Assembly (NCBI GenBank): GCA_029778615.1
Contig: JAKOPZ010000034.1
Span: 1-64,000 of the forward strand
Length of the DNA stretch: 64,000 nt
Direction: 5' to 3'
Origin: Chloroflexota bacterium
GTDB taxonomy: Bacteria; Chloroflexota; Anaerolineae; UBA4142; SHND01
Part shown: in pieces, positions 7,903 through 16,559 of the stretch
Layout of the letters: each line of letters opens with the position of its first letter
Position numbering within the stretch: position 1 is the first letter of the stretch
Program-made: the position numbers and the translations under genes
The notes under the pieces: model-generated
Seen by the model: the letters and a program-made list of their open reading frames with translations, nothing else
Database searches by the model: none
What the model was told of the DNA's origin: nothing

Positions 7903-9126
7903 TCAAACCGAAATCGGGGAGTCTACGTATTGCGGCTGTAGCGCGCTCGTTTGCGTCACGTATTCATACAGCGCAAGCGTTTGATGAATCACCACGCGCC
8001 AATCGAAACGTTCGCGCGCGATTTGGTACGATGCCGCGCCCATCGCGCGCAATTTGTTTTGGTCGCGCAGCGCGAGCAATAGTTTGTCCGCCAACGCTTG
8101 CACGTCACCCGGCGGAACGAGAAAACCGTTTTCCCCGCGCATAATTTTGTCGGGAATGCCGCCGACCATTGTGCCGATGAGCGGACGCGCGTGGCACATC
8201 GCTTCGAGCGTGACGAGCGACGAACCTTCAAACAGCGTGGGATGCACAAACAACGTGGCAAGTTCGTACAAATTGTGCAGAGTAATGTCGTCCACGTTGC
8301 CCAACAAGCGCACGTGATTTTGCAATTGATACTTGCGAATTTTTTCTTGCAGCGCGTGGCGTTCCGGTCCGTCGCCGATGAGCAGCCATTCCCATTTGGA
8401 CGGCAAATTCGCGCGAATAATTTTCAACGCATCGAGCATGAGGTCGAACCCTTTGTTTTGCTCCAAACGTCCGACGCTCAACACCAACGGCTGGCGCTGT
8501 GCCAACTGGAGACGCTGCACCAACACGCGCTGAACATCAATGCTCACGAAACTGCGCGCCGCATCCACATCAATTCCGTTCGGTATCAGCGCGACCTGTT
8601 CGAGCGGCACGCGCAGGAATTTTGGAATGTCATTCACAGTCAGCGTGTCGGCGGCAATCAACGCGCTCGCATGTTGCGCCGCATAACGCGCTGCCATGTG
8701 CAGCGGCGTGTACGCCGCCCGTTTTGCAAACGACGTTTTGAATTCTTCCATCCCCTGCGGATTGATGACGAGCGGCGCGTGCGCGACTCCACTTGCCAAT
8801 AACTGCGCGTACCCGAAACCTGCGACGCCCTGCGCGTGTACCAAATCCACCGGCAGTGCAGCAACCACACGCGCGGCAGCTTGCGACCAACGCGGATAAT
8901 TCAGTACGCGGTCGGCAATGCCGTTTACGGGCAAACGCGACGACTCGACAATTTTTAATTCAATGCCGGGTTCGTGCCATTGCGCGTCGCGCGTCGGAGG
9001 CATCGTCACAATGGTGACGCGGACGCCGGAGCGGGTGAGGTGACGCGCAAGTTCCAAAACATGGCGCTCCATGCCGCCATAGCCATGGAGCCCAAACACC
9101 GCGCGCGAGACAAGTGCAATGTGCAT
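7903..9126 (-). CDS. Glycosyltransferase family 4 (GT-B fold)
   Basis: A 407-aa GT-B enzyme. The N-terminal domain has the typical GYGGMERH segment; the C-terminal donor-binding domain has LSVGRLEQNKGFDLMLDAL and the ExxxxxxLE signature (FEGSSLVTLEAMCHARP) with GGIPD. Retaining GT4 enzymes transfer sugars from nucleotide donors in the cytoplasm. Its ATG overlaps the stop of the upstream GT4 gene by one base (TAATG), so the pair is translationally coupled. Donor and acceptor are not deducible. Confidence 0.92.
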   Translation of the reverse strand: MHIALVSRAVFGLHGYGGMERHVLELARHLTRSGVRVTIVTMPPTRDAQWHEPGIELKIVESSRLPVNGIADRVLNYPRWSQAAARVVAALPVDLVHAQGVAGFGYAQLLASGVAHAPLVINPQGMEEFKTSFAKRAAYTPLHMAARYAAQHASALIAADTLTVNDIPKFLRVPLEQVALIPNGIDVDAARSFVSIDVQRVLVQRLQLAQRQPLVLSVGRLEQNKGFDLMLDALKIIRANLPSKWEWLLIGDGPERHALQEKIRKYQLQNHVRLLGNVDDITLHNLYELATLFVHPTLFEGSSLVTLEAMCHARPLIGTMVGGIPDKIMRGENGFLVPPGDVQALADKLLLALRDQNKLRAMGAASYQIARERFDWRVVIHQTLALYEYVTQTSALQPQYVDSPISV

Positions 9127-10370
9127 TAGGACAAACGAGGGACCGATACCGTGTTGTGCTTTGGCGTTGACCGTTGAGACACGACATCGTTGTAAATTTT
9201 TTCCAGTTGGTTAACGACAATGTCAGGGCTGAATTTTGCGCGCGCCACGCGTTTTGCGTTTTCGCCCAAGTGCGCGCGCAGTTCTGCGTCGTTCACCACC
9301 CGACGGAGCTGCGCAGAAAATTCCGATACATCTTGCGCGAGCAGCCCGTTGAAATTGGTTTCTATAATATCACGAGTTCCGCCTGTGTTCAATGCGACGG
9401 TTGGCACGCCCAACGCTTGGGCTTCGAGCAGTGTACGCGCCAACGGTTCCGCCCAACGCGATGGAAAAACGAGCGCCATAGCGCCCTGCAAGAGACGCAG
9501 TGTCTCGCTGTTTGAGAGCCAGCCGCGCATTTCAATTCCCTTACAATTCGCCAACTGCGCGCGCAATTCGCCGTCGCCCGCCACAACCAGCGGAATGTTC
9601 ACACCGCTTGTTTCCAAAATTTCGGGCAGCAAGTCCGCGCCTTTCAACGCGTTCAATTTTCCGATAAACATTAAATACGGTCGTTCGCCGTCGGTTGTTT
9701 GTCCTGCGGCATTCTCTATCTCTATCAAGTTTGGCACGACGCGCAATTTTTTTTCGTCCACAATTCCGCGCAGAGTGCTGGCCACAAAACCGCTCACCGC
9801 AATCACCGCGTCGGATTGCTGCAAGGCGCGTTGGCGGCGCCGCACTTCGCGCTCGACCAATGGAATTGCGGGGAGCATGAATTTTGCCGCGCCGCCGTAC
9901 TTTTGGGCAAGACACTGTGTCAGTTCGCCGCCGCGACACACGGGACAAATCGCGTTGTCGCGCCATAACGTTCCGTACAAACAGACCGCCCAATAATCGC
10001 GCACGGTGCTGACGACGGGCACGCGCGCGATTTTTTTCGCGGCAGTTGCAGCAGAGATGGAAAGCACGTGCTGCGCGTGAATCACATCAAATTCGCGCGC
10101 GCGCGGCGCGAGATACGCGCCCAAGTTTTTTTCCAACGCGCGTGTTTTTTGCCAGGCGCGCAGCGCGGGAAGGTTCGACGCGGTATAGCCCACCTCGACG
10201 ACGTTCAATCCTTGATATTCGCGCGTTGAAATTTCGCGCGTGCCGAGTTTTGGCAAGACGATTTCGATGCGATGTCCGCGCGTTTGCAATGCGCGCGCAA
10301 GATGAAACGTGCTCCAGCCGCTGCCGCCACTTTTTGGGGGAAAGACATCGGTGGCGATAAGGATGTTCAC
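9126..10370 (-). CDS. Glycosyltransferase family 4 with Cys insert
   Basis: A 414-aa GT-B protein starting MNILIATDVFPPKSGGSGW, which is typical of GT4. The donor domain shows MFIGKLNALKGADLL and FPSRWAEPLARTLLEAQALGVP with the catalytic-site Glu. Residues about 130-165 contain a CxxC-type cluster (AICPVCRGGELTQC), seen in a GT4 subgroup and possibly a structural zinc site. Its start overlaps the upstream flippase-like gene by 4 nt and its end overlaps the next GT4 start, so three genes form a tight operon. Confidence 0.92.
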   Translation of the reverse strand: MNILIATDVFPPKSGGSGWSTFHLARALQTRGHRIEIVLPKLGTREISTREYQGLNVVEVGYTASNLPALRAWQKTRALEKNLGAYLAPRAREFDVIHAQHVLSISAATAAKKIARVPVVSTVRDYWAVCLYGTLWRDNAICPVCRGGELTQCLAQKYGGAAKFMLPAIPLVEREVRRRQRALQQSDAVIAVSGFVASTLRGIVDEKKLRVVPNLIEIENAAGQTTDGERPYLMFIGKLNALKGADLLPEILETSGVNIPLVVAGDGELRAQLANCKGIEMRGWLSNSETLRLLQGAMALVFPSRWAEPLARTLLEAQALGVPTVALNTGGTRDIIETNFNGLLAQDVSEFSAQLRRVVNDAELRAHLGENAKRVARAKFSPDIVVNQLEKIYNDVVSQRSTPKHNTVSVPRLS

Positions 10371-11401
10371 TTGGAGTCAGGTGACGGGTGACGGGTGACG
10401 GGCGCGGGAGAAAGCAAGTCATTCCGCTGTGGTCTGTCGGCTGCGGTCTGTCGTCGTTTAGAAAACCACACCAGCCCGCCGGGCAAACTGGTCAACACCA
10501 CAATGACGTGAAACAGCAGCGACATTGCGAGCGCGCGGTCGCCCGGCACGCCGACGAGTCCAAAAAAGAAAACGACGACGGCTTCTTTGGCGCCGAGTCC
10601 GTTGAACGAAATCGGAATGAGCAAAATGAACGCGATGAGGGGATTGAACAAGAGAAAGGTAAAGAAACTCACGTCGGTGATGCCCACCGCCTGCCCGACG
10701 AGAAACCAGACGAACGCGGTCAGTACCACAATCGTCATCGAAAGCAAAACGTTCAACGCGAGCGCGCCGTAGCGAAAGCGATACACCTGAAGCGCGCGGT
10801 ACACATTTTCAGCCGTTGGGCGAAAACGTTGCAGCGGACCGAGATTGAAAATAAATTTCAGACGCTGGGCAATCCGCCGACTGAACATCGCGGCGCACAA
10901 CGCAATGAACGCGCTGGCGGCAATCACGGTTGCGACTTCGATTTGTTCCAGTGCGTACGCTTGCGCCAACATCACTGTCGCCAACGCGGCGGTCACGACC
11001 GCAGCCGAGAAAAACGCAAAGAGCCCCATCAAGCGGTCCACCAATACCGAAATCGCCGCCGCTTCCGCGCGTCCGCGCGTCACGCGCGCGAGGTCGTACG
11101 CGCGCACCACATCGCCGCCAATGTTGGAGGGCAGCACATTGCCCAAGAATAAACCGAGCAGCGAAAACGAAACGAGCGCGCCAAAGGACGCTTGAATCTC
11201 TTGCGCTTTGACGAGAATTTCCCACTTGAGTACGCCCAAGAGAAGCGCGCCAAAATACAACGCGAGCGCGGCAAGCAGCAGCCACAGATTCGATTGGGCA
11301 ATAATGCCCCACACCAACTGCAAATCAATCCGCGAGAGCAGAAACGCAAACAGCGCGAGGGTGACGAGAATTTTTAGAACGTTAACGAGATTTTGTTTCA
11401 T
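10367..11401 (-). CDS. Flippase-like / lysylphosphatidylglycerol synthase TM-domain protein (UPF0104)
   Basis: A 344-aa polytopic membrane protein with about eight hydrophobic segments. The motif LGNVLPSNIGGDVVRAYDLAR and the later SFNGLGAKEAVVVFFFGLVG are typical of the LPG_synthase_TM / AglD-like family. Members occur beside glycosyltransferases and are thought to move lipid-linked intermediates or to modify lipids. It overlaps the downstream GT4 gene by 4 nt. The lysyl-transferase soluble domain of MprF is absent, so aminoacyl-lipid synthesis is unlikely. Three GTGACGG units (10381-10401) lie inside its 3' end. Confidence 0.88.
   Translation of the reverse strand: MKQNLVNVLKILVTLALFAFLLSRIDLQLVWGIIAQSNLWLLLAALALYFGALLLGVLKWEILVKAQEIQASFGALVSFSLLGLFLGNVLPSNIGGDVVRAYDLARVTRGRAEAAAISVLVDRLMGLFAFFSAAVVTAALATVMLAQAYALEQIEVATVIAASAFIALCAAMFSRRIAQRLKFIFNLGPLQRFRPTAENVYRALQVYRFRYGALALNVLLSMTIVVLTAFVWFLVGQAVGITDVSFFTFLLFNPLIAFILLIPISFNGLGAKEAVVVFFFGLVGVPGDRALAMSLLFHVIVVLTSLPGGLVWFSKRRQTAADRPQRNDLLSPAPVTRHPSPDSK
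10381..10401. repeat. Heptamer array GTGACGG x3 in 3' end of flippase-like gene
   Basis: Three exact 7-nt units sit in the last codons of the flippase-like gene. They encode part of its low-complexity C-terminus (APVTRHPSPDSK). Confidence 0.7.
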
Positions 11402-11469
11402 AAGCGAATGCGATACGACAATACTTGGCGCGCGAACCGGAGAATCACCGGCACTTTCTCACGCTTGCA

Positions 11470-12387
11470 TTATTTCGTTGGCGGCTTGACGGGTTCGGGT
11501 TGGCGTTCAACCTGTTTTGTCGTCCACGCGATATTCCACACTTCATGTTTGCGCCCGCGCACAAAATAATCGTACGTGCCGAGCAAGCGCGCAAACCATT
11601 CCACGAGCGCGAGCGTGACGAGTGTATAAATCAAACGCACCGCTTTCCACGCTTCTTCCCACGCGATGCGCGAGACGCGCAGATTGTCCATCGAAGAAAC
11701 TTTGTAGCCGTACTTGCGCACGAGATGCAAATGTCCCGCGTAATTGCGGCGGCGCTGCATGATAAATTCACGCAGCGTTTCGGGACCGGTGTTGTACACC
11801 ACCGCGTCGGGCGCGTATTTCACTTCCAGCCCGCGTCGAATGACCAGCGCTTCGACAAATGCTTCGTCCATTGCGACATCGGGCGGCAAATGCGTAAACA
11901 CTTTGCGGAACGCGATGAGTTCGCCGAGACGCGGAATTTCCAAACACAACTCGTGTTCCATCTGCAAACGCAGATGCGACATGTACCCGACAATGTGGTC
12001 CGGCACATTCGTCGGAATTTTTTGCGCGCCCGTCATGCCCACTTTCGGGTCGGCAAATAATTTCACAAGATTCTCGAGCGTGGTTTGTCCCGGAATGGTG
12101 TCGCCGCTTTCGACGACGCAAATATCTTGGCTCGCGTTTTGCAAAAACAAATTGATGGCGGATGTTTTGCCTTCGCGATTCACCTGCTCCAAAAGTTTTA
12201 CGCGCGGGTCGCGTTGTTCGTACCCGCGCACAATATCGCACGTGTCGTCGGTACAGCCGCTCGCGACGACAATGATTTCGCTAATTTCGACCTGCTCCAA
12301 TTCTTGCGCGAGCATCGCGTCGAGCAGCTTGCCGATATTTTTTGCTTCATTATGCGCCGTGATGCCGACGCTGCAAGGAATGGACAT
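11470..12387 (-). CDS. Glycosyltransferase family 2 with C-terminal membrane segment
   Basis: A 305-aa GT2 enzyme starting at ATG 12387 (MSIPCSVGITAHNEAKN). A longer open frame reaches 13056, but it only shadows the upstream GT-C gene. Motifs are IVVASGCTDDT, the VVESGDTIPG metal-site region and the acceptor-side RRRNYAGHLH. A hydrophobic segment near the C-terminus (AVRLIYTLVTLALVEWFARL) suggests membrane attachment, as in processive or lipid-linked GT2s. It begins 17 nt after the GT-C gene, and that spacer contains heptamer units. Confidence 0.88.
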   Translation of the reverse strand: MSIPCSVGITAHNEAKNIGKLLDAMLAQELEQVEISEIIVVASGCTDDTCDIVRGYEQRDPRVKLLEQVNREGKTSAINLFLQNASQDICVVESGDTIPGQTTLENLVKLFADPKVGMTGAQKIPTNVPDHIVGYMSHLRLQMEHELCLEIPRLGELIAFRKVFTHLPPDVAMDEAFVEALVIRRGLEVKYAPDAVVYNTGPETLREFIMQRRRNYAGHLHLVRKYGYKVSSMDNLRVSRIAWEEAWKAVRLIYTLVTLALVEWFARLLGTYDYFVRGRKHEVWNIAWTTKQVERQPEPVKPPTK

Positions 12388-12414
12388 GAGACTGGAATTG
12401 GAGACTAGAGATTG
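12388..12414. repeat. Heptamer units GAGACTG/GAGACTA/GAGATTG
   Basis: Four imperfect 7-nt units of the GAGAxTx family occupy the junction between the GT-C stop (12405) and the GT2 start. The repeat overlaps the last codons of the GT-C gene. Confidence 0.6.
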
Positions 12415-14045
12415 ATTGATTTCAAAAATAACTCGAACGCCGCCGTAGACTCTTTGGTCAAAGTGAAGGTCAAAAAATAAAGCGGCGCTAATAATACCAC
12501 GAGTGCGAATGCGCTCCACGAAACTGGCAACGCGCGCGCGATGGAACGCGAGAAAACAAGCGCGGCGAGGATTGCGCCAACGACGAGCAAAGCAAATCCA
12601 AAAAACACGCCGAGCGCGAATGGCTCGAACCCGGGCGCAATGAGCGGTGCGCGAATCGGGCTGGTCTGGCTGTTGATAAACGGCTGCAATAACGCGGCGG
12701 CGGCGGCGCCAAGAAACAGAGAGACGGAAACGAACGCGGTGACGCGCGCATTTTGCGCGAATTGTATCGCGCGCGGATGTTCGCGCCACAGCCAAACCAA
12801 CATGCCGAGCCATAACGCGCTGTTGAAAATTCCCAACGCGCCGTACCACCACACGTGCGCTTGATTTGCCCACGAAGCAAAATACGGCGAGAGCGAAATG
12901 AATGAAACCGCAACAACAATGAGCGAGAGCAGCCGAAAATGTTTTGTGGTCACGAGTGAGACAAGCGCAAAGGGCAGAACCATCACGTAATAATAGCCGA
13001 CCACTTTTTTGGAAAGGAGAAAAAACGCGAGCACAAGCAACAATGCCAACAGCCACACATCCATTTTGCGCCGCGCGCCAAAAAAGGCAAGCAGCGCGGC
13101 GGCAACAAAGGTAAGCAGCGACGACGCGCGCAGAAATAAATTATCTGTCCCAAATAAACCCGCCAGCGCGACGAGCCACGATTGCGTTTGCAGCGGCACA
13201 TCCGCCACATATTGGACGTTCATATACCAATAATCGTTCGAGTACAAGAGAAACGGCAGAGAGACCGCCAGAATCGGCAGCGCATACACGAGCAGAGAGG
13301 CGAGAATTGGCAGCGCGCGTCCAAGAAAACGTTTTTCGTCGCTTGCAAAAAACAGCGTCGCCCAAAACGGCAACGCGAACAACAGCGCGTTTTGTTTGAA
13401 CAAGAACGCGACGGACAGCGCGAGCGTCGGCAAGAGCCAACCGCGTTTTCGTTCAAACAAAAAATATCCGAGCCCGACAAAAAACAACCACTCGGCTTCA
13501 AAGTGTCCTTGCACCGCCGTATCGTACCACGTCACCGGATTCAACAGCCACACCAACATTCCCAAACGCGCCAGATTTTTATTGTGCGTCTTGTACGCGA
13601 TGAGGAGATACAACAAGATGCCGAGGGCGATATCACACAACACGGGCGGCACGCGCACGAGCAAAAAATCGGGAACACTGCCCGCGAGGGCGACGAACGG
13701 CGCGACGCTGAACGCGTGCAGCGGCGGATACGCATAGGGCCAATAGCGGTCCGCGCGGGACTGCGCGTAGAGCGCGCTCCATTCCGGCGACAAAATGGTT
13801 TTGCCTGCGCCGATGAACGTCACTGCGTCCCATGTTTGGGAGAAATAAGGATGAAGGGAAAGAACCGTGACGACGACGAGCGCGGCGTACAAACAGACGA
13901 TGCCAAGCATCCAACGCGCGTCGCGCGTGAAAACAATCGCCTGCGAGCCGGATTCCGCCGCAGGCGAGAGAAAGGTCACAACCGATTGTGAGAGCGTAGC
14001 GGACTGCGTCGGCTCGCGTTCTTCCGACGCGCGCGATAAAGCCAT
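12405..14045 (-). CDS. GT-C membrane glycosyltransferase (ALG6/ALG8 or DUF2029-like)
   Basis: A 546-aa protein with a cytoplasmic N-terminus, then about 11-12 membrane segments. The first external loop has WDAVTFIGAGKTIL, and later loops have RADRYWPYAYPPL and PVTWYDTAVQGHFEAEWLFF. These acidic and aromatic loop motifs fit the GT-C fold of ALG6/ALG8 or mannosyltransferase (DUF2029) type. It likely transfers a polyprenyl-phosphate sugar outside the membrane. It is the first glycosyltransferase after the nucleotidyltransferase and may be read through from it (31-nt gap). Confidence 0.85.
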   Translation of the reverse strand: MALSRASEEREPTQSATLSQSVVTFLSPAAESGSQAIVFTRDARWMLGIVCLYAALVVVTVLSLHPYFSQTWDAVTFIGAGKTILSPEWSALYAQSRADRYWPYAYPPLHAFSVAPFVALAGSVPDFLLVRVPPVLCDIALGILLYLLIAYKTHNKNLARLGMLVWLLNPVTWYDTAVQGHFEAEWLFFVGLGYFLFERKRGWLLPTLALSVAFLFKQNALLFALPFWATLFFASDEKRFLGRALPILASLLVYALPILAVSLPFLLYSNDYWYMNVQYVADVPLQTQSWLVALAGLFGTDNLFLRASSLLTFVAAALLAFFGARRKMDVWLLALLLVLAFFLLSKKVVGYYYVMVLPFALVSLVTTKHFRLLSLIVVAVSFISLSPYFASWANQAHVWWYGALGIFNSALWLGMLVWLWREHPRAIQFAQNARVTAFVSVSLFLGAAAAALLQPFINSQTSPIRAPLIAPGFEPFALGVFFGFALLVVGAILAALVFSRSIARALPVSWSAFALVVLLAPLYFLTFTLTKESTAAFELFLKSINL

Positions 14046-14076: not shown

Positions 14077-15171
14077 TCAAAAATGGTCGGACGAGAGGTT
14101 GCGGCGCGTAAATTTTCGAAAACGGTCCCAAAACGCGCGCACTTGATAGCGCGCGAGAAACGGTTCGTCCAACGCGGCATAGTAACCGAGCGCCGCTTCG
14201 AGCCGATTCGGCACGCGTGCGCGCAGTGCGTTTTGCCAGAGCGCGGGTTTGCGCCACACGTGGAGGACGGATTCTTGCAGCATCGGCAGCGAGCGTGCGC
14301 GCAAATTGCCCCACCGCCGCAACACATCTTCCACAATCCACGCGGGCAGACGCGCGGGCGCGGCGGCGAGCGGTGTCTGCGTGAGGTCGGCATCCAGCAG
14401 CCGCTGTGCCAACCACAGCGCGGTGGTGACCCACGAACGATACGGCGGATGCGACAAACAGCGCGCCCAATCAAAATCGGCAGGATAGGTTTCCACCAAC
14501 GCGGCAACATCGCACAGCCAAATCGGGCGCGCAAAAAAATGCCGCGCACAGTGGATGCTCACCACTTGCAGTTCCTCTTCGGGCGCCAGCACGCGCACGC
14601 GCAGTGCGCCAATCTGTTTGACCTGCGTGCGCGCATACACTTGCTCCCACGCGGAATCCGGAATGTACGCGGCGTGCGCGGGGTCATTGAGCCCCGGGTG
14701 TACGTCAATGTCCGTCGGGCGCGCACCGAGTGCGCGTAAAATTTCCAGCGCGCGCGGCGCATCCTGCGGCGCAATGGCTACATCCACGTCACCCGCCGGA
14801 CGCAAGCCGGGTTCCGCATAGTGCGAAAATAAACTCCAGCCCTTGAAAACAATTGGGTCAATCTTGTGCGCGTGCAGCGCGGAAACATATTGATACACGC
14901 GATGCGTCGCGGCGGCGGCGCGAATGGATTGGTTCACGTACTCTTGACGCAACGCCGCGCCGGTCGGCGTTTTGGCAAGCGCGCTGCGTCGAATCCTCCA
15001 CCACGCCAAACCGCCGAGGTTCTCGACCGCGAGGTCGGCTTGAATCTCTTGCAAATCGCTTTCCGCACACGTGACAGGGGGGGGGTGCGCGCGCCACGCG
15101 CCGCGCAGCATTTGCGCGACCTGCGCGCCTTTTCTTTCGCGCGCGCGCTTGTCCGGGAGTAAAGCAGCCAC
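14077..15171 (-). CDS. Uncharacterised nucleotidyltransferase family protein (PF14907-like)
   Basis: About 364 aa. The core FKGWSLFSHYAEPGLRPAGDVDVAI shows the GS..(D)xD pattern of the pol-beta-like fold. From memory, the segments 'FKG' and 'R..GDVDV' match the NTP_transf_5 family, which appears in lasso-peptide and other RiPP clusters. A longer frame starts at TTG 15219, but that lies in the loop of a terminator hairpin, so GTG 15171 is preferred. A run of nine G (15077-15085) lies in the N-terminal coding region. Its role here is unknown; nucleotidylation of the peptide encoded next door is one hypothesis. Confidence 0.8.
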   Translation of the reverse strand: MAALLPDKRARERKGAQVAQMLRGAWRAHPPPVTCAESDLQEIQADLAVENLGGLAWWRIRRSALAKTPTGAALRQEYVNQSIRAAAATHRVYQYVSALHAHKIDPIVFKGWSLFSHYAEPGLRPAGDVDVAIAPQDAPRALEILRALGARPTDIDVHPGLNDPAHAAYIPDSAWEQVYARTQVKQIGALRVRVLAPEEELQVVSIHCARHFFARPIWLCDVAALVETYPADFDWARCLSHPPYRSWVTTALWLAQRLLDADLTQTPLAAAPARLPAWIVEDVLRRWGNLRARSLPMLQESVLHVWRKPALWQNALRARVPNRLEAALGYYAALDEPFLARYQVRAFWDRFRKFTRRNLSSDHF

Positions 15172-15202
15172 GCGATGGTTATACCCCAACTCGCAGAAAA
15201 TA

Positions 15203-15230
15203 AAAATCCTGCAAAGCAATGCTTTGCAGG
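15203..15230 (-). terminator. Rho-independent terminator/attenuator after the PqqD-Cys peptide gene
   Basis: A 10-bp perfect stem (CCTGCAAAGC and GCTTTGCAGG) with loop AAT spans 15208-15230. On the minus strand it is followed by ATTTTTATTTTC. It lies between the Cys-rich peptide gene and the nucleotidyltransferase gene. That position would give high expression of the peptide and leaky expression of the enzymes below. Confidence 0.85.
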
Positions 15231-15256
15231 AAGTAACACTCGTTCAACAGCTTGCG

Positions 15257-15712
15257 TCAAACTCCCACACAACAGCCGGAAATACAAACATCAGGTGGTG
15301 TGCAATCCGGGGTTACAACGCACGATTGCCCGGGGCATGCGCCGCTAACAGGAACATTCGGGTCAGGCAAATGAATTGTCTTGATGACCGGAATCGCGGC
15401 AGCTGCGATGGCGCCCTTTTTCAAAAATTCGCGCCGCGTCATGGGACGCGCGTCTGCGGTGCGTGAGGGAATTGTCTGTAACAAATGCTTTTGCGACAGT
15501 TGTGCGAGCGCATACGTGATAGTCATCTCGTCAAGCGCGAGTTCGCGCGCAATATCTGCGATGCTGTGATGCCCGTCGCATTTCTGCCACACCGACGCTG
15601 CGGTCTCGTTCAACAAACGCGTCACCTCGCCGTCTTGCAAAATCAATTCACCGTCCATCGGTTGAACGATGAAACCTTCACGTCGCGCTTGCGGATAAAA
15701 TGGCGATGCCAT
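15257..15712 (-). CDS. PqqD-domain / Tat-like signal / six-Cys tail small protein (candidate modified peptide)
   Basis: A 151-aa protein with three parts. Residues 5-80 are a PqqD-like domain (GELILQDGEVTRLLNETAASVW, then helices), a peptide-binding RRE-type fold. Residues 93-110 are TRREFLKKGAIAAAAIPVI, which looks like a Tat twin-arginine signal placed internally. Residues 121-151 are a short tail with Cys126, 131, 137, 143, 147 and 148 (C-x4-C-x5-C-x5-C-x3-CC) and several Pro. ATG 15712 is preferred over 15775 because AAAAGGGGGGAC precedes it. It follows the HprK-like gene by 31 nt and is followed by a terminator. Carrying a recognition domain and the probable core on one chain is unusual. 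It may be a self-presenting precursor or a small exported Cys protein. Confidence 0.8.
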   Translation of the reverse strand: MASPFYPQARREGFIVQPMDGELILQDGEVTRLLNETAASVWQKCDGHHSIADIARELALDEMTITYALAQLSQKHLLQTIPSRTADARPMTRREFLKKGAIAAAAIPVIKTIHLPDPNVPVSGACPGQSCVVTPDCTPPDVCISGCCVGV

Positions 15713-15743
15713 ATGTCCCCCCTTTTGAGGATGAGTTGGAGTT

Positions 15744-16559
15744 TTAGGCGAGCTGTTGAAGCAACTGTGTGGCAAACGATTTTGCTTCGCCGCGCGCGCT
15801 TTTCAGGATTCTCGCATTTTTTGCGACGCGTGTCAACACCTCCAGTACGAGCGGCTGTCCTGAACGCGCAGTGACAGTATTTGCCAAAAGTTCCAACGCG
15901 CCGAGTCCGGGCGTCAAAATTTTTGGTCGCCATTTCGCGCCGGCGCGAAATTTTGTAACCAAAACCGTTCCCACCGGAATTGCGCGCACGCCAATTTTTC
16001 CTTCCAACTCGTCAAAGCCCAATTTTGCATTGCGCTTCATCTCATCGCGCAAGGAAAGCTGCCGCGCGAACGGATGCACGCGTCCTTGTTGGTCCAGCAC
16101 GGCAAATTCATCGGAATAGTACGTCGCGCCCGCGCGCACCAATTCGTGCACAAGGGTACTTTTACCCGCGTACGACTTGGCGGGAATCAGAATCGCGCGC
16201 CCCCGCCAACCGACGACGCCCGCGTGCACAAACACTTTGCGCCGCGCCTTTTGCGCGACGGCGAGCTGAGCGTCGCGTTCGAACGCGTCTACCAACTGTT
16301 CGATTTCGCGCAAGCGCGCGTATTGTTTTTCGTTGCTGTACAACACATGATAGGGTCGGCGTCCGGAACGCGTGCGCGGGGCAACCCACAACGAGTACAT
16401 CCAATCCACCTTTTGCGTCGCCATCACTTTGGAATGCGGCGGCAGCGAGTCAAACATCCGGCGAAACACCGCGGCGTCGTTCGTGCGCACACCGATGCGC
16501 GCGTCGTAACAGGTGAACGCGCCGAATTGCGTCCAGTGAAGCAAGTCGGGATTTTCCAT
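15744..16559 (-). CDS. HprK-like serine kinase / P-loop protein
   Basis: A 271-aa protein. Residues 124-135 (LIPAKSYAGKST) form a P-loop like that of HPr kinase. It is followed by HELVRAGATYYSDEFAVLD, matching the HprK C-terminal fold where the Asp/Glu residues bind Mg. The N-terminal HprK domain is absent or replaced. Such short HprK homologues accompany PqqD-like proteins and nucleotidyltransferases in peptide clusters, and in some lasso clusters they phosphorylate a Ser of the precursor (established for PadeK-type kinases). Here Ser/Thr residues in the neighbouring Cys-rich protein are possible targets; this is inference. Confidence 0.82.
   Translation of the reverse strand: MENPDLLHWTQFGAFTCYDARIGVRTNDAAVFRRMFDSLPPHSKVMATQKVDWMYSLWVAPRTRSGRRPYHVLYSNEKQYARLREIEQLVDAFERDAQLAVAQKARRKVFVHAGVVGWRGRAILIPAKSYAGKSTLVHELVRAGATYYSDEFAVLDQQGRVHPFARQLSLRDEMKRNAKLGFDELEGKIGVRAIPVGTVLVTKFRAGAKWRPKILTPGLGALELLANTVTARSGQPLVLEVLTRVAKNARILKSARGEAKSFATQLLQQLA

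What the first reader, a model, noticed from the sequence alone, without database searches (positions are those of the whole stretch)
14077..16559. PqqD-Tat-six-Cys protein with an HprK-like kinase and a PF14907-type nucleotidyltransferase
A 151-aa protein joins a PqqD (RRE-type) domain, an internal RREFLKKG Tat-like motif and a tail with six Cys (C-x4-C-x5-C-x5-C-x3-CC). Its gene is between a short HprK-like kinase and a nucleotidyltransferase of a family I associate with RiPP clusters. RRE domains normally sit on enzymes or stand alone, so fusion to a likely substrate would make a self-presenting precursor. The usual lasso or thiopeptide enzymes are missing, so known classes do not fit.
Basis: partly seen in the sequence, partly recalled or inferred. 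Interest (0 to 1): 0.85.

Follow-up and report, generated by a model that had tools for sequence, protein, structure and literature searches.

The report
Secreted Cys-rich peptides with built-in leader-binder
A small bacterial protein carries, in one chain, a peptide-modification recognition domain, an export signal and a fast-evolving cysteine-rich mini-peptide; together with one dedicated kinase it forms an apparently undescribed secreted-peptide system found across Acidobacteriota, Gemmatimonadota and Chloroflexota.

Summary
The 151-aa protein has a PqqD/RRE fold (residues 5-84; best structural matches are lasso-peptide B1 proteins bound to leaders), an internal Tat signal and a six-Cys tail. 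Its neighbours are an HprK/PEPCK-fold kinase and a PF14907 nucleotidyltransferase.

The architecture recurs in Anaerolineae, Blastocatellia and Gemmatimonadetes. The order kinase, RRE-Tat-tail, nucleotidyltransferase is kept on one strand in 29 of 31 stringent three-gene loci. PqqD and Tat parts are under strong purifying selection. Tails are hypervariable, keep their Cys and nearly always have an even Cys number, so disulfides are likely. The kinase is usually single-copy and co-occurs with the tail genes genome-wide (87 of 91 Blastocatellia carriers, 13 of 14 Anaerolineae), even when not adjacent; carriers hold 1 to at least 24 tail genes.

Best reading: a RiPP-like system with the RRE fused to its substrate; a kinase (in many loci also a nucleotidyltransferase) modifies the precursor, and Tat plus signal peptidase release a small peptide. 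Architecture, conservation and co-occurrence are shown; phosphorylation, nucleotidyl or sugar transfer, cleavage and function are inferred. It is not a lasso cluster.

The parts
15744..16559 (-). HprK/PEPCK-fold peptide kinase (271 aa): Walker A AKSYAGKST (G132-K133), H112, S149-D150-E151, R256
   Evidence: only copy found in this genome
16568..16595 (-). sigma-70-like promoter TTGACA-16-TATACT (11 of 12) just before the kinase start
   Evidence: consensus match only
15461..15712 (-). PqqD/RRE domain, residues 1-84 of the precursor; [quoted passage not shown]
15338..15442 (-). internal Tat signal, residues 91-125: twin-Arg, hydrophobic region, putative SPase I site V-S-G-A|C
   Evidence: cleavage site inferred by eye
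15257..15337 (-). six-Cys tail, residues 126-151 (CPGQSCVVTPDCTPPDVCISGCCVGV) and stop; proposed mature peptide
15207..15231 (-). 11-bp hairpin followed by T-run: intrinsic terminator or attenuator between precursor and NTase
14077..15189 (-). PF14907 nucleotidyltransferase; invariant K116-G117 and D134-x-D136 (start codon uncertain, up to 15219)
7903..14045 (-). flanking glycan genes: glycosyltransferases, LPG_synthase_TM flippase, PMT-type transferase; neighbourhood, not part of the minimal system

Best explanation
The 151-aa protein is a RiPP-like precursor that carries its own RRE in cis. Proposed steps: (1) the N-terminal PqqD/RRE domain docks the precursor on the HprK-like kinase, which phosphorylates a Ser/Thr of the linker or tail (candidate: the Ser/Thr that usually precedes the first tail Cys; this position is Ala in the window protein, so another Ser/Thr would have to serve there); (2) where present, the PF14907 enzyme extends the phosphate with a nucleotide or sugar; (3) the internal Tat signal exports the tail while the RRE stays inside; (4) signal peptidase cuts after the A-x-A-like site and frees a peptide of about 25-60 aa (longer in some paralogs) whose Cys pair as disulfides outside the cytoplasm. 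One kinase serves all RRE-Tat-tail paralogs of a genome. Shown: gene order, predicted RRE and kinase folds, twin-Arg invariance, conserved head and variable tail, even Cys numbers, kinase co-occurrence. Inferred: every catalytic and export step and the final role (most likely a secreted effector in competition or at the cell surface).
For: RRE: PF05402 in 55/55; AF2 model with RRE topology; VIA-align best hits are lasso B1 proteins with bound leader, 6jx3 Z 8.6 over 75 residues and 28% identity, TbiB1 Z 8.5, then TruD, TigE and MccB. Export: RR invariant in 55/55, TatC in this genome, A-x-A-like site found automatically in 70 of 85. Precursor-like evolution: dN/dS about 0.05-0.14 in PqqD and mostly 0.02-0.16 in Tat, with tail dN up to tenfold higher; tail Cys columns 80% identical against 45% for other tail positions; Cys count even in 63 of 68 tails. 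Partner: kinase in 13/14 Anaerolineae genomes with the full protein against 3/284 without, and in 87/91 Blastocatellia-class genomes against 4/56; kinase present in all 17 tested carrier genomes, including those whose tail locus lacks it. Order kinase-RRE-NTase in 29/31. Published precedent: the PqqD-type protein BsfB1 speeds phosphorylation of a lasso precursor by the HprK-like kinase BsfK at Ser3 of the core (PMC10368454); PsmN adds hexoses to the phospho-Ser made by PsmK (PMC9266682).
Against: No modification, export or activity has been observed. Tails without Cys exist (GAT-repeat in L025, TPTNTPTDT-repeat in L035, TTT-rich tails), so no single core chemistry fits all. One Anaerolineae (G211) and four Blastocatellia-class genomes have the protein without a detected kinase. 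The NTase is missing beside many tail genes and its family is common anyway. S/T before the first Cys (48/68) could reflect signal-peptidase preference rather than phosphorylation, and the window protein lacks it. Co-occurrence statistics ignore shared ancestry.
Confidence: 0.55

Rival explanations
1. Built-in Tat chaperone: the RRE domain binds its own Tat signal or linker, as dedicated Tat chaperones do in trans, and holds export until the kinase phosphorylates the head. The tail itself is an unmodified disulfide-rich secreted peptide.
For: Head and Tat signal are conserved together while the tail is free to vary; tails of quite different chemistry (Cys-rich, GAT-repeat, TPT-repeat) share one head; kinase tracks the head.
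Against: Does not explain the NTase; RREs are not known to bind Tat signals; no intramolecular contact could be measured (coordinates not available).
Confidence: 0.22
2. The tails are exported inhibitors or regulators of the C25/gingipain-like peptidases encoded next to some of them.
For: C25 peptidase genes beside tail genes in Chloroflexota and Acidobacteriota (13 of 89 fetched stretches, some of them overlapping the same genomic locus); some tails have knottin spacing, a fold known for protease inhibitors (established knowledge).
Against: Most loci, including this window's cassette, lack a C25 gene nearby; no test of binding.
Confidence: 0.1
3. Membrane-anchored regulator: the Tat-like segment is an uncleaved anchor, the winged-helix-like PqqD domain a cytoplasmic reader and the tail an outside sensor feeding the kinase, linked to surface glycan production.
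For: Glycan biosynthesis genes flank the cassette in the window and in Acidobacteriota.
Against: A-x-A-like sites, hypervariable tails and up to at least 24 paralogs per kinase do not suit a sensor; closest folds are RREs rather than DNA-binding proteins.
Confidence: 0.08

Closest known systems
Kinase/B1/nucleotidyltransferase tailoring module of phosphorylated lasso peptides (paeninodin, pseudomycoidin, bsf)
   Same: HprK-like kinase, PqqD-type RRE and a nucleotidyltransferase gene together; the RRE aids precursor phosphorylation in bsf (PMC10368454); RRE domain structurally closest to lasso B1
   Different: No lasso cyclase or B2 peptidase seen in the cassette; RRE is fused to the exported tail; Tat signal; even Cys counts; four of nine tested carrier genomes have no PF13471 match at all
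HPr-rel-A system (NCBIfam TIGR04352 kinase, TIGR04353 PqqD)
   Same: HprK-related kinase paired with a PqqD-family protein
   Different: Scores far below the curated cut-offs (59 of 200 bits for the window kinase; the two PqqD members that matched TIGR04353 scored 14.5 and 17.5 of 35 bits); the TIGR04353 model has 74 positions, too short for a Tat signal and tail
SynChlorMet cassette (ScmC kinase, ScmD PqqD)
   Same: HprK-like and PqqD-like pair
   Different: Scores below cut-off; no radical SAM gene in the cassette here
Knottins (inhibitor cystine knot peptides)
   Same: Some tails have C-x6-C-x5-CC-x3-C-x(4-8)-C spacing (L027, L081, L100, L110); weak Pfam matches to knottin-type families
   Different: The window tail has spacing 4-5-5-3-0; relation by spacing only

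Membership tests
RRE / PqqD-like domain | PF05402 match and beta3-alpha3 winged fold | tested here: met
RRE / PqqD-like domain | binds a leader peptide | not testable with these tools
   no complex prediction available
Tat substrate | twin-Arg motif followed by hydrophobic stretch, Tat translocase in genome | tested here: met
Tat substrate | signal cleaved and tail exported | not testable with these tools
   needs expression
HprK/PEPCK kinase superfamily | fold and Walker A plus catalytic acidic pair | tested here: met
   second acid is Glu151 where lasso kinases have Asp (PMC10368454)
HPr-rel-A system | scores above TIGR04352 / TIGR04353 cut-offs | tested here: not met
PF14907 nucleotidyltransferase | above gathering score, GDxD active-site motif | tested here: met
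Lasso peptide cluster | B2 leader peptidase (PF13471) near the precursor | tested here: not met
   hits in this genome only on contigs C60 and C103, none on the window contig; none in G182, G310, G311, G300
Lasso peptide cluster | asparagine-synthetase-like cyclase | tested here: inconclusive
   not seen among neighbours scanned, but no dedicated search was made and one search lists only the 25 commonest families
RiPP | ribosomal precursor, conserved leader with variable core | tested here: met
RiPP | enzymatic post-translational modification of the core | not testable with these tools
   needs mass spectrometry
Knottin | ICK spacing C-C-CC-C-C | tested here: not met
   window tail spacing 4-5-5-3-0; met by spacing in some relatives only

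The most novel reading that the evidence does not exclude
A new, widespread class of RiPP-like secreted peptides: the recognition element is fused in cis to a Tat signal and a hypervariable, disulfide-rich core, and a single HprK-like kinase (with or without a nucleotidyltransferase) licenses or decorates a whole family of such precursors, up to 24 or more per genome.
Probability: 0.45. Interest if true: 0.88.

Novelty: new variant of a known kind. Interest (0 to 1): 0.76.

Why it matters
Here a recognition domain that normally sits on an enzyme or stands alone is built into the substrate and joined to a Tat signal, in 91 of 147 sampled genomes of the Blastocatellia-type class. That gives a genome-mining handle for a large, apparently undescribed set of small disulfide-rich secreted peptides, and a simple test of what HprK-like kinases and PF14907 enzymes paired with PqqD proteins do. 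If the kinase gates Tat export, it would be a new form of export control.

Tried and rejected
Lasso or other known RiPP class: rejected as membership because no B2 peptidase lies nearby. Thioether, lanthionine or azole core: disfavoured by even Cys counts and no such enzyme seen nearby. Tat-tail genes without PqqD (hits G003:C439 and C203): contig-edge truncations, not stand-alone genes. Defence system: PADLOC gave only weak HTH-like matches to the precursor. NTase as phyletic marker: family too broad. Sequence search of PDB with kinase, NTase and precursor profiles: no significant hits, hence structure prediction. First genome-contig query (A2) was too diverse; A3 worked. Papers: no description of an RRE-Tat-precursor fusion found in the open-access library; most subscription papers and preprints are not covered. 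Pair dS was often saturated, so only some dN/dS values are usable.

Full report
Check of the observation. The 151-aa protein passes the PqqD and Tat models. The kinase is only weakly matched by sequence (TIGR04352 E=3e-16, below its cut-off), but its predicted structure (pLDDT 93.5) matches HprK/P and PEPCK with Foldseek probability 1.00. The third protein is a clear PF14907 nucleotidyltransferase. The kinase has a near-consensus promoter directly upstream, and a strong hairpin plus T-run lies between the precursor gene and the NTase, so kinase and precursor look like a two-gene unit with the NTase set apart or reached by read-through.

RRE fold. AlphaFold2 with 55 relatives gives strands 15-19, 22-27, 30-34 and helices 36-44, 51-58, 62-74, then a separate helix over the Tat region and a small hairpin in the tail. 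Foldseek ranks RRE-bearing RiPP enzymes first (TruD, TigE). VIA-align ranks lasso B1 proteins bound to leader peptides first: 6jx3 chain B, Z 8.6, rmsd 2.3, 75 aligned, 28% identity; TbiB1 Z 8.5. These Z values are only just above the level the tool calls common, but the first eight rows are all RRE proteins and the HMM result agrees.

Family. This genome has three further RRE-Tat-tail paralogs and genus relatives have one to five each. Beyond the genus, full-length relatives occur in other Anaerolineae families (the class name rests on the record titles of loci that overlap these genomes). A scan of named genomes found 55 loci, mostly Acidobacteriota (Pyrinomonadaceae, Blastocatellia), plus Gemmatimonadetes, Anaerolineae and one MAG labelled Betaproteobacteria. 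In the class of locus L102, 91 of 147 sampled genomes carry the family; two reach 24 copies, which equals the number of candidates scored, so 24 is a lower bound. In those genomes many tails are longer (about 80-110 aa) and still Cys-rich.

Anatomy. The twin-Arg pair is invariant in 55 of 55 aligned members and is usually preceded by Ser or Thr. An A-x-A-like site was found automatically in 70 of 85. Median tail length is 34 residues, with Cys 16% of short tails against 1.9% of the head. Cys number is even in 63 of 68 tails; at least three of the exceptions come from where the script cut the tail. Ser or Thr precedes the first tail Cys in 48 of 68 (background 22%); in the window protein this residue is Ala. 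Some tails have no Cys: GAT-repeat (L025), TPTNTPTDT-repeat (L035), TTT-rich. Among close pairs with usable dS, dN/dS is about 0.05-0.14 in the PqqD part and mostly 0.02-0.16 in Tat, while tail dN is several-fold to tenfold higher with dN/dS about 0.13-0.6. Tail Cys columns are 80% identical against 45% for other tail positions.

Partners. With length filters, 31 loci have all three genes together; 29 have the order kinase, RRE-Tat-tail, NTase on one strand, and gene distances correlate (Mantel P about 0.002 for each pair, which also reflects common descent). Catalytic residues are conserved: kinase G132-K133, D150, E151, R256 (H112 nearly so); NTase K116-G117, D134, D136. In 298 genomes of the window's class the full-length kinase occurs in 16 and the full-length RRE-Tat-tail in 14, with 13 shared; in 147 genomes of the Acidobacteriota class both occur in 87, one alone in four each, neither in 52. 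The Fisher values ignore phylogeny; with the window genus counted once, eight genomes remain shared against one and three discordant. All 17 carrier genomes of named loci that were tested have the kinase, usually one copy, including those whose tail gene has none beside it. In the window's genus the kinase stays beside the same glycosyltransferase cluster while the tail gene and NTase come and go. So the kinase is the fixed partner and most likely acts in trans. The NTase family is common in this class irrespective of tail genes.

Mechanism. Literature gives a direct precedent for the pairing: in the bsf lasso cluster the PqqD-type BsfB1 accelerates phosphorylation of the precursor by the HprK-like BsfK at Ser3 of the core, and an NTase gene is present (PMC10368454); in pseudomycoidin PsmK phosphorylates and PsmN, annotated as nucleotidyltransferase, is needed for adding hexoses to the phospho-Ser (PMC9266682). 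I propose the same logic with the RRE fused to the substrate. Shown here: predicted folds, order, conservation, co-occurrence. Inferred: kinase action on this protein, the site, NTase chemistry, Tat export, cleavage, disulfides, function. The main rival is that the RRE is a built-in Tat chaperone and the kinase licenses export; both predict kinase dependence but differ in where the phosphate sits.

Membership and novelty. It is an RRE-containing, RiPP-like system, but not a lasso cluster (no PF13471 gene near; four of nine tested carriers have none at all) and not the HPr-rel-A equivalog by score. The two RRE surveys that were consulted describe RREs as discrete proteins or fused to enzymes; term searches for kinase, Tat and Acidobacteri in the 2025 survey, and for kinase, signal peptide and Acidobacteri in the 2020 survey, gave no hits (PMC12710340, PMC7470986). 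The 2025 survey notes that 21% of PF05402 proteins are longer than a discrete RRE yet have no other Pfam annotation, where this family would fall. The open-access library is incomplete, so novelty is provisional.

Noticed in passing
L024, L026, L027, L028, L029, L032, L173, L081, L091: C25/gingipain-like peptidase genes (PF01364 confirmed in L024, L026, L081, L091) lie next to RRE-Tat-tail or kinase genes in both Chloroflexota and Acidobacteriota; relation to the tails unknown.
   Followed up: partly
G388 (L181-L185) and G399 (L186-L188): Genomes with at least 24 RRE-Tat-tail genes but one kinase; many tails there are about 80-110 aa with many Cys.
   Followed up: partly
L025:8090-8614, L035:8043-8738: The same RRE-Tat head carries a collagen-like GAT-repeat tail and a TPTNTPTDT-repeat tail instead of a Cys-rich one.
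   Followed up: no
G000:C60:20060-25787 and G000:C103:3570-11510: Same genome has two loci with PF13471 and PF14907-type genes close together, possibly true lasso clusters.
   Followed up: no
L073:3309-10890: One contig holds an RRE-Tat-tail gene, the kinase, and a second small PqqD with an ScmC-like kinase and a radical-SAM-like gene.
   Followed up: no
L102, L105, L113, L114, L115, L122: In Acidobacteriota the cassette sits after glycan genes (UDP-GlcNAc 2-epimerase, glycosyltransferases, WecA-like) and before TsaB-like and RimI-like genes; the window cassette is also beside glycan genes.
   Followed up: partly
L067:7107-7850, L075:8745-11198, L076:3103-4644: Proteins that look related to each other sit next to Thr-rich-tail versions; family not identified (DUF6065 suspected from memory).
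   Followed up: no
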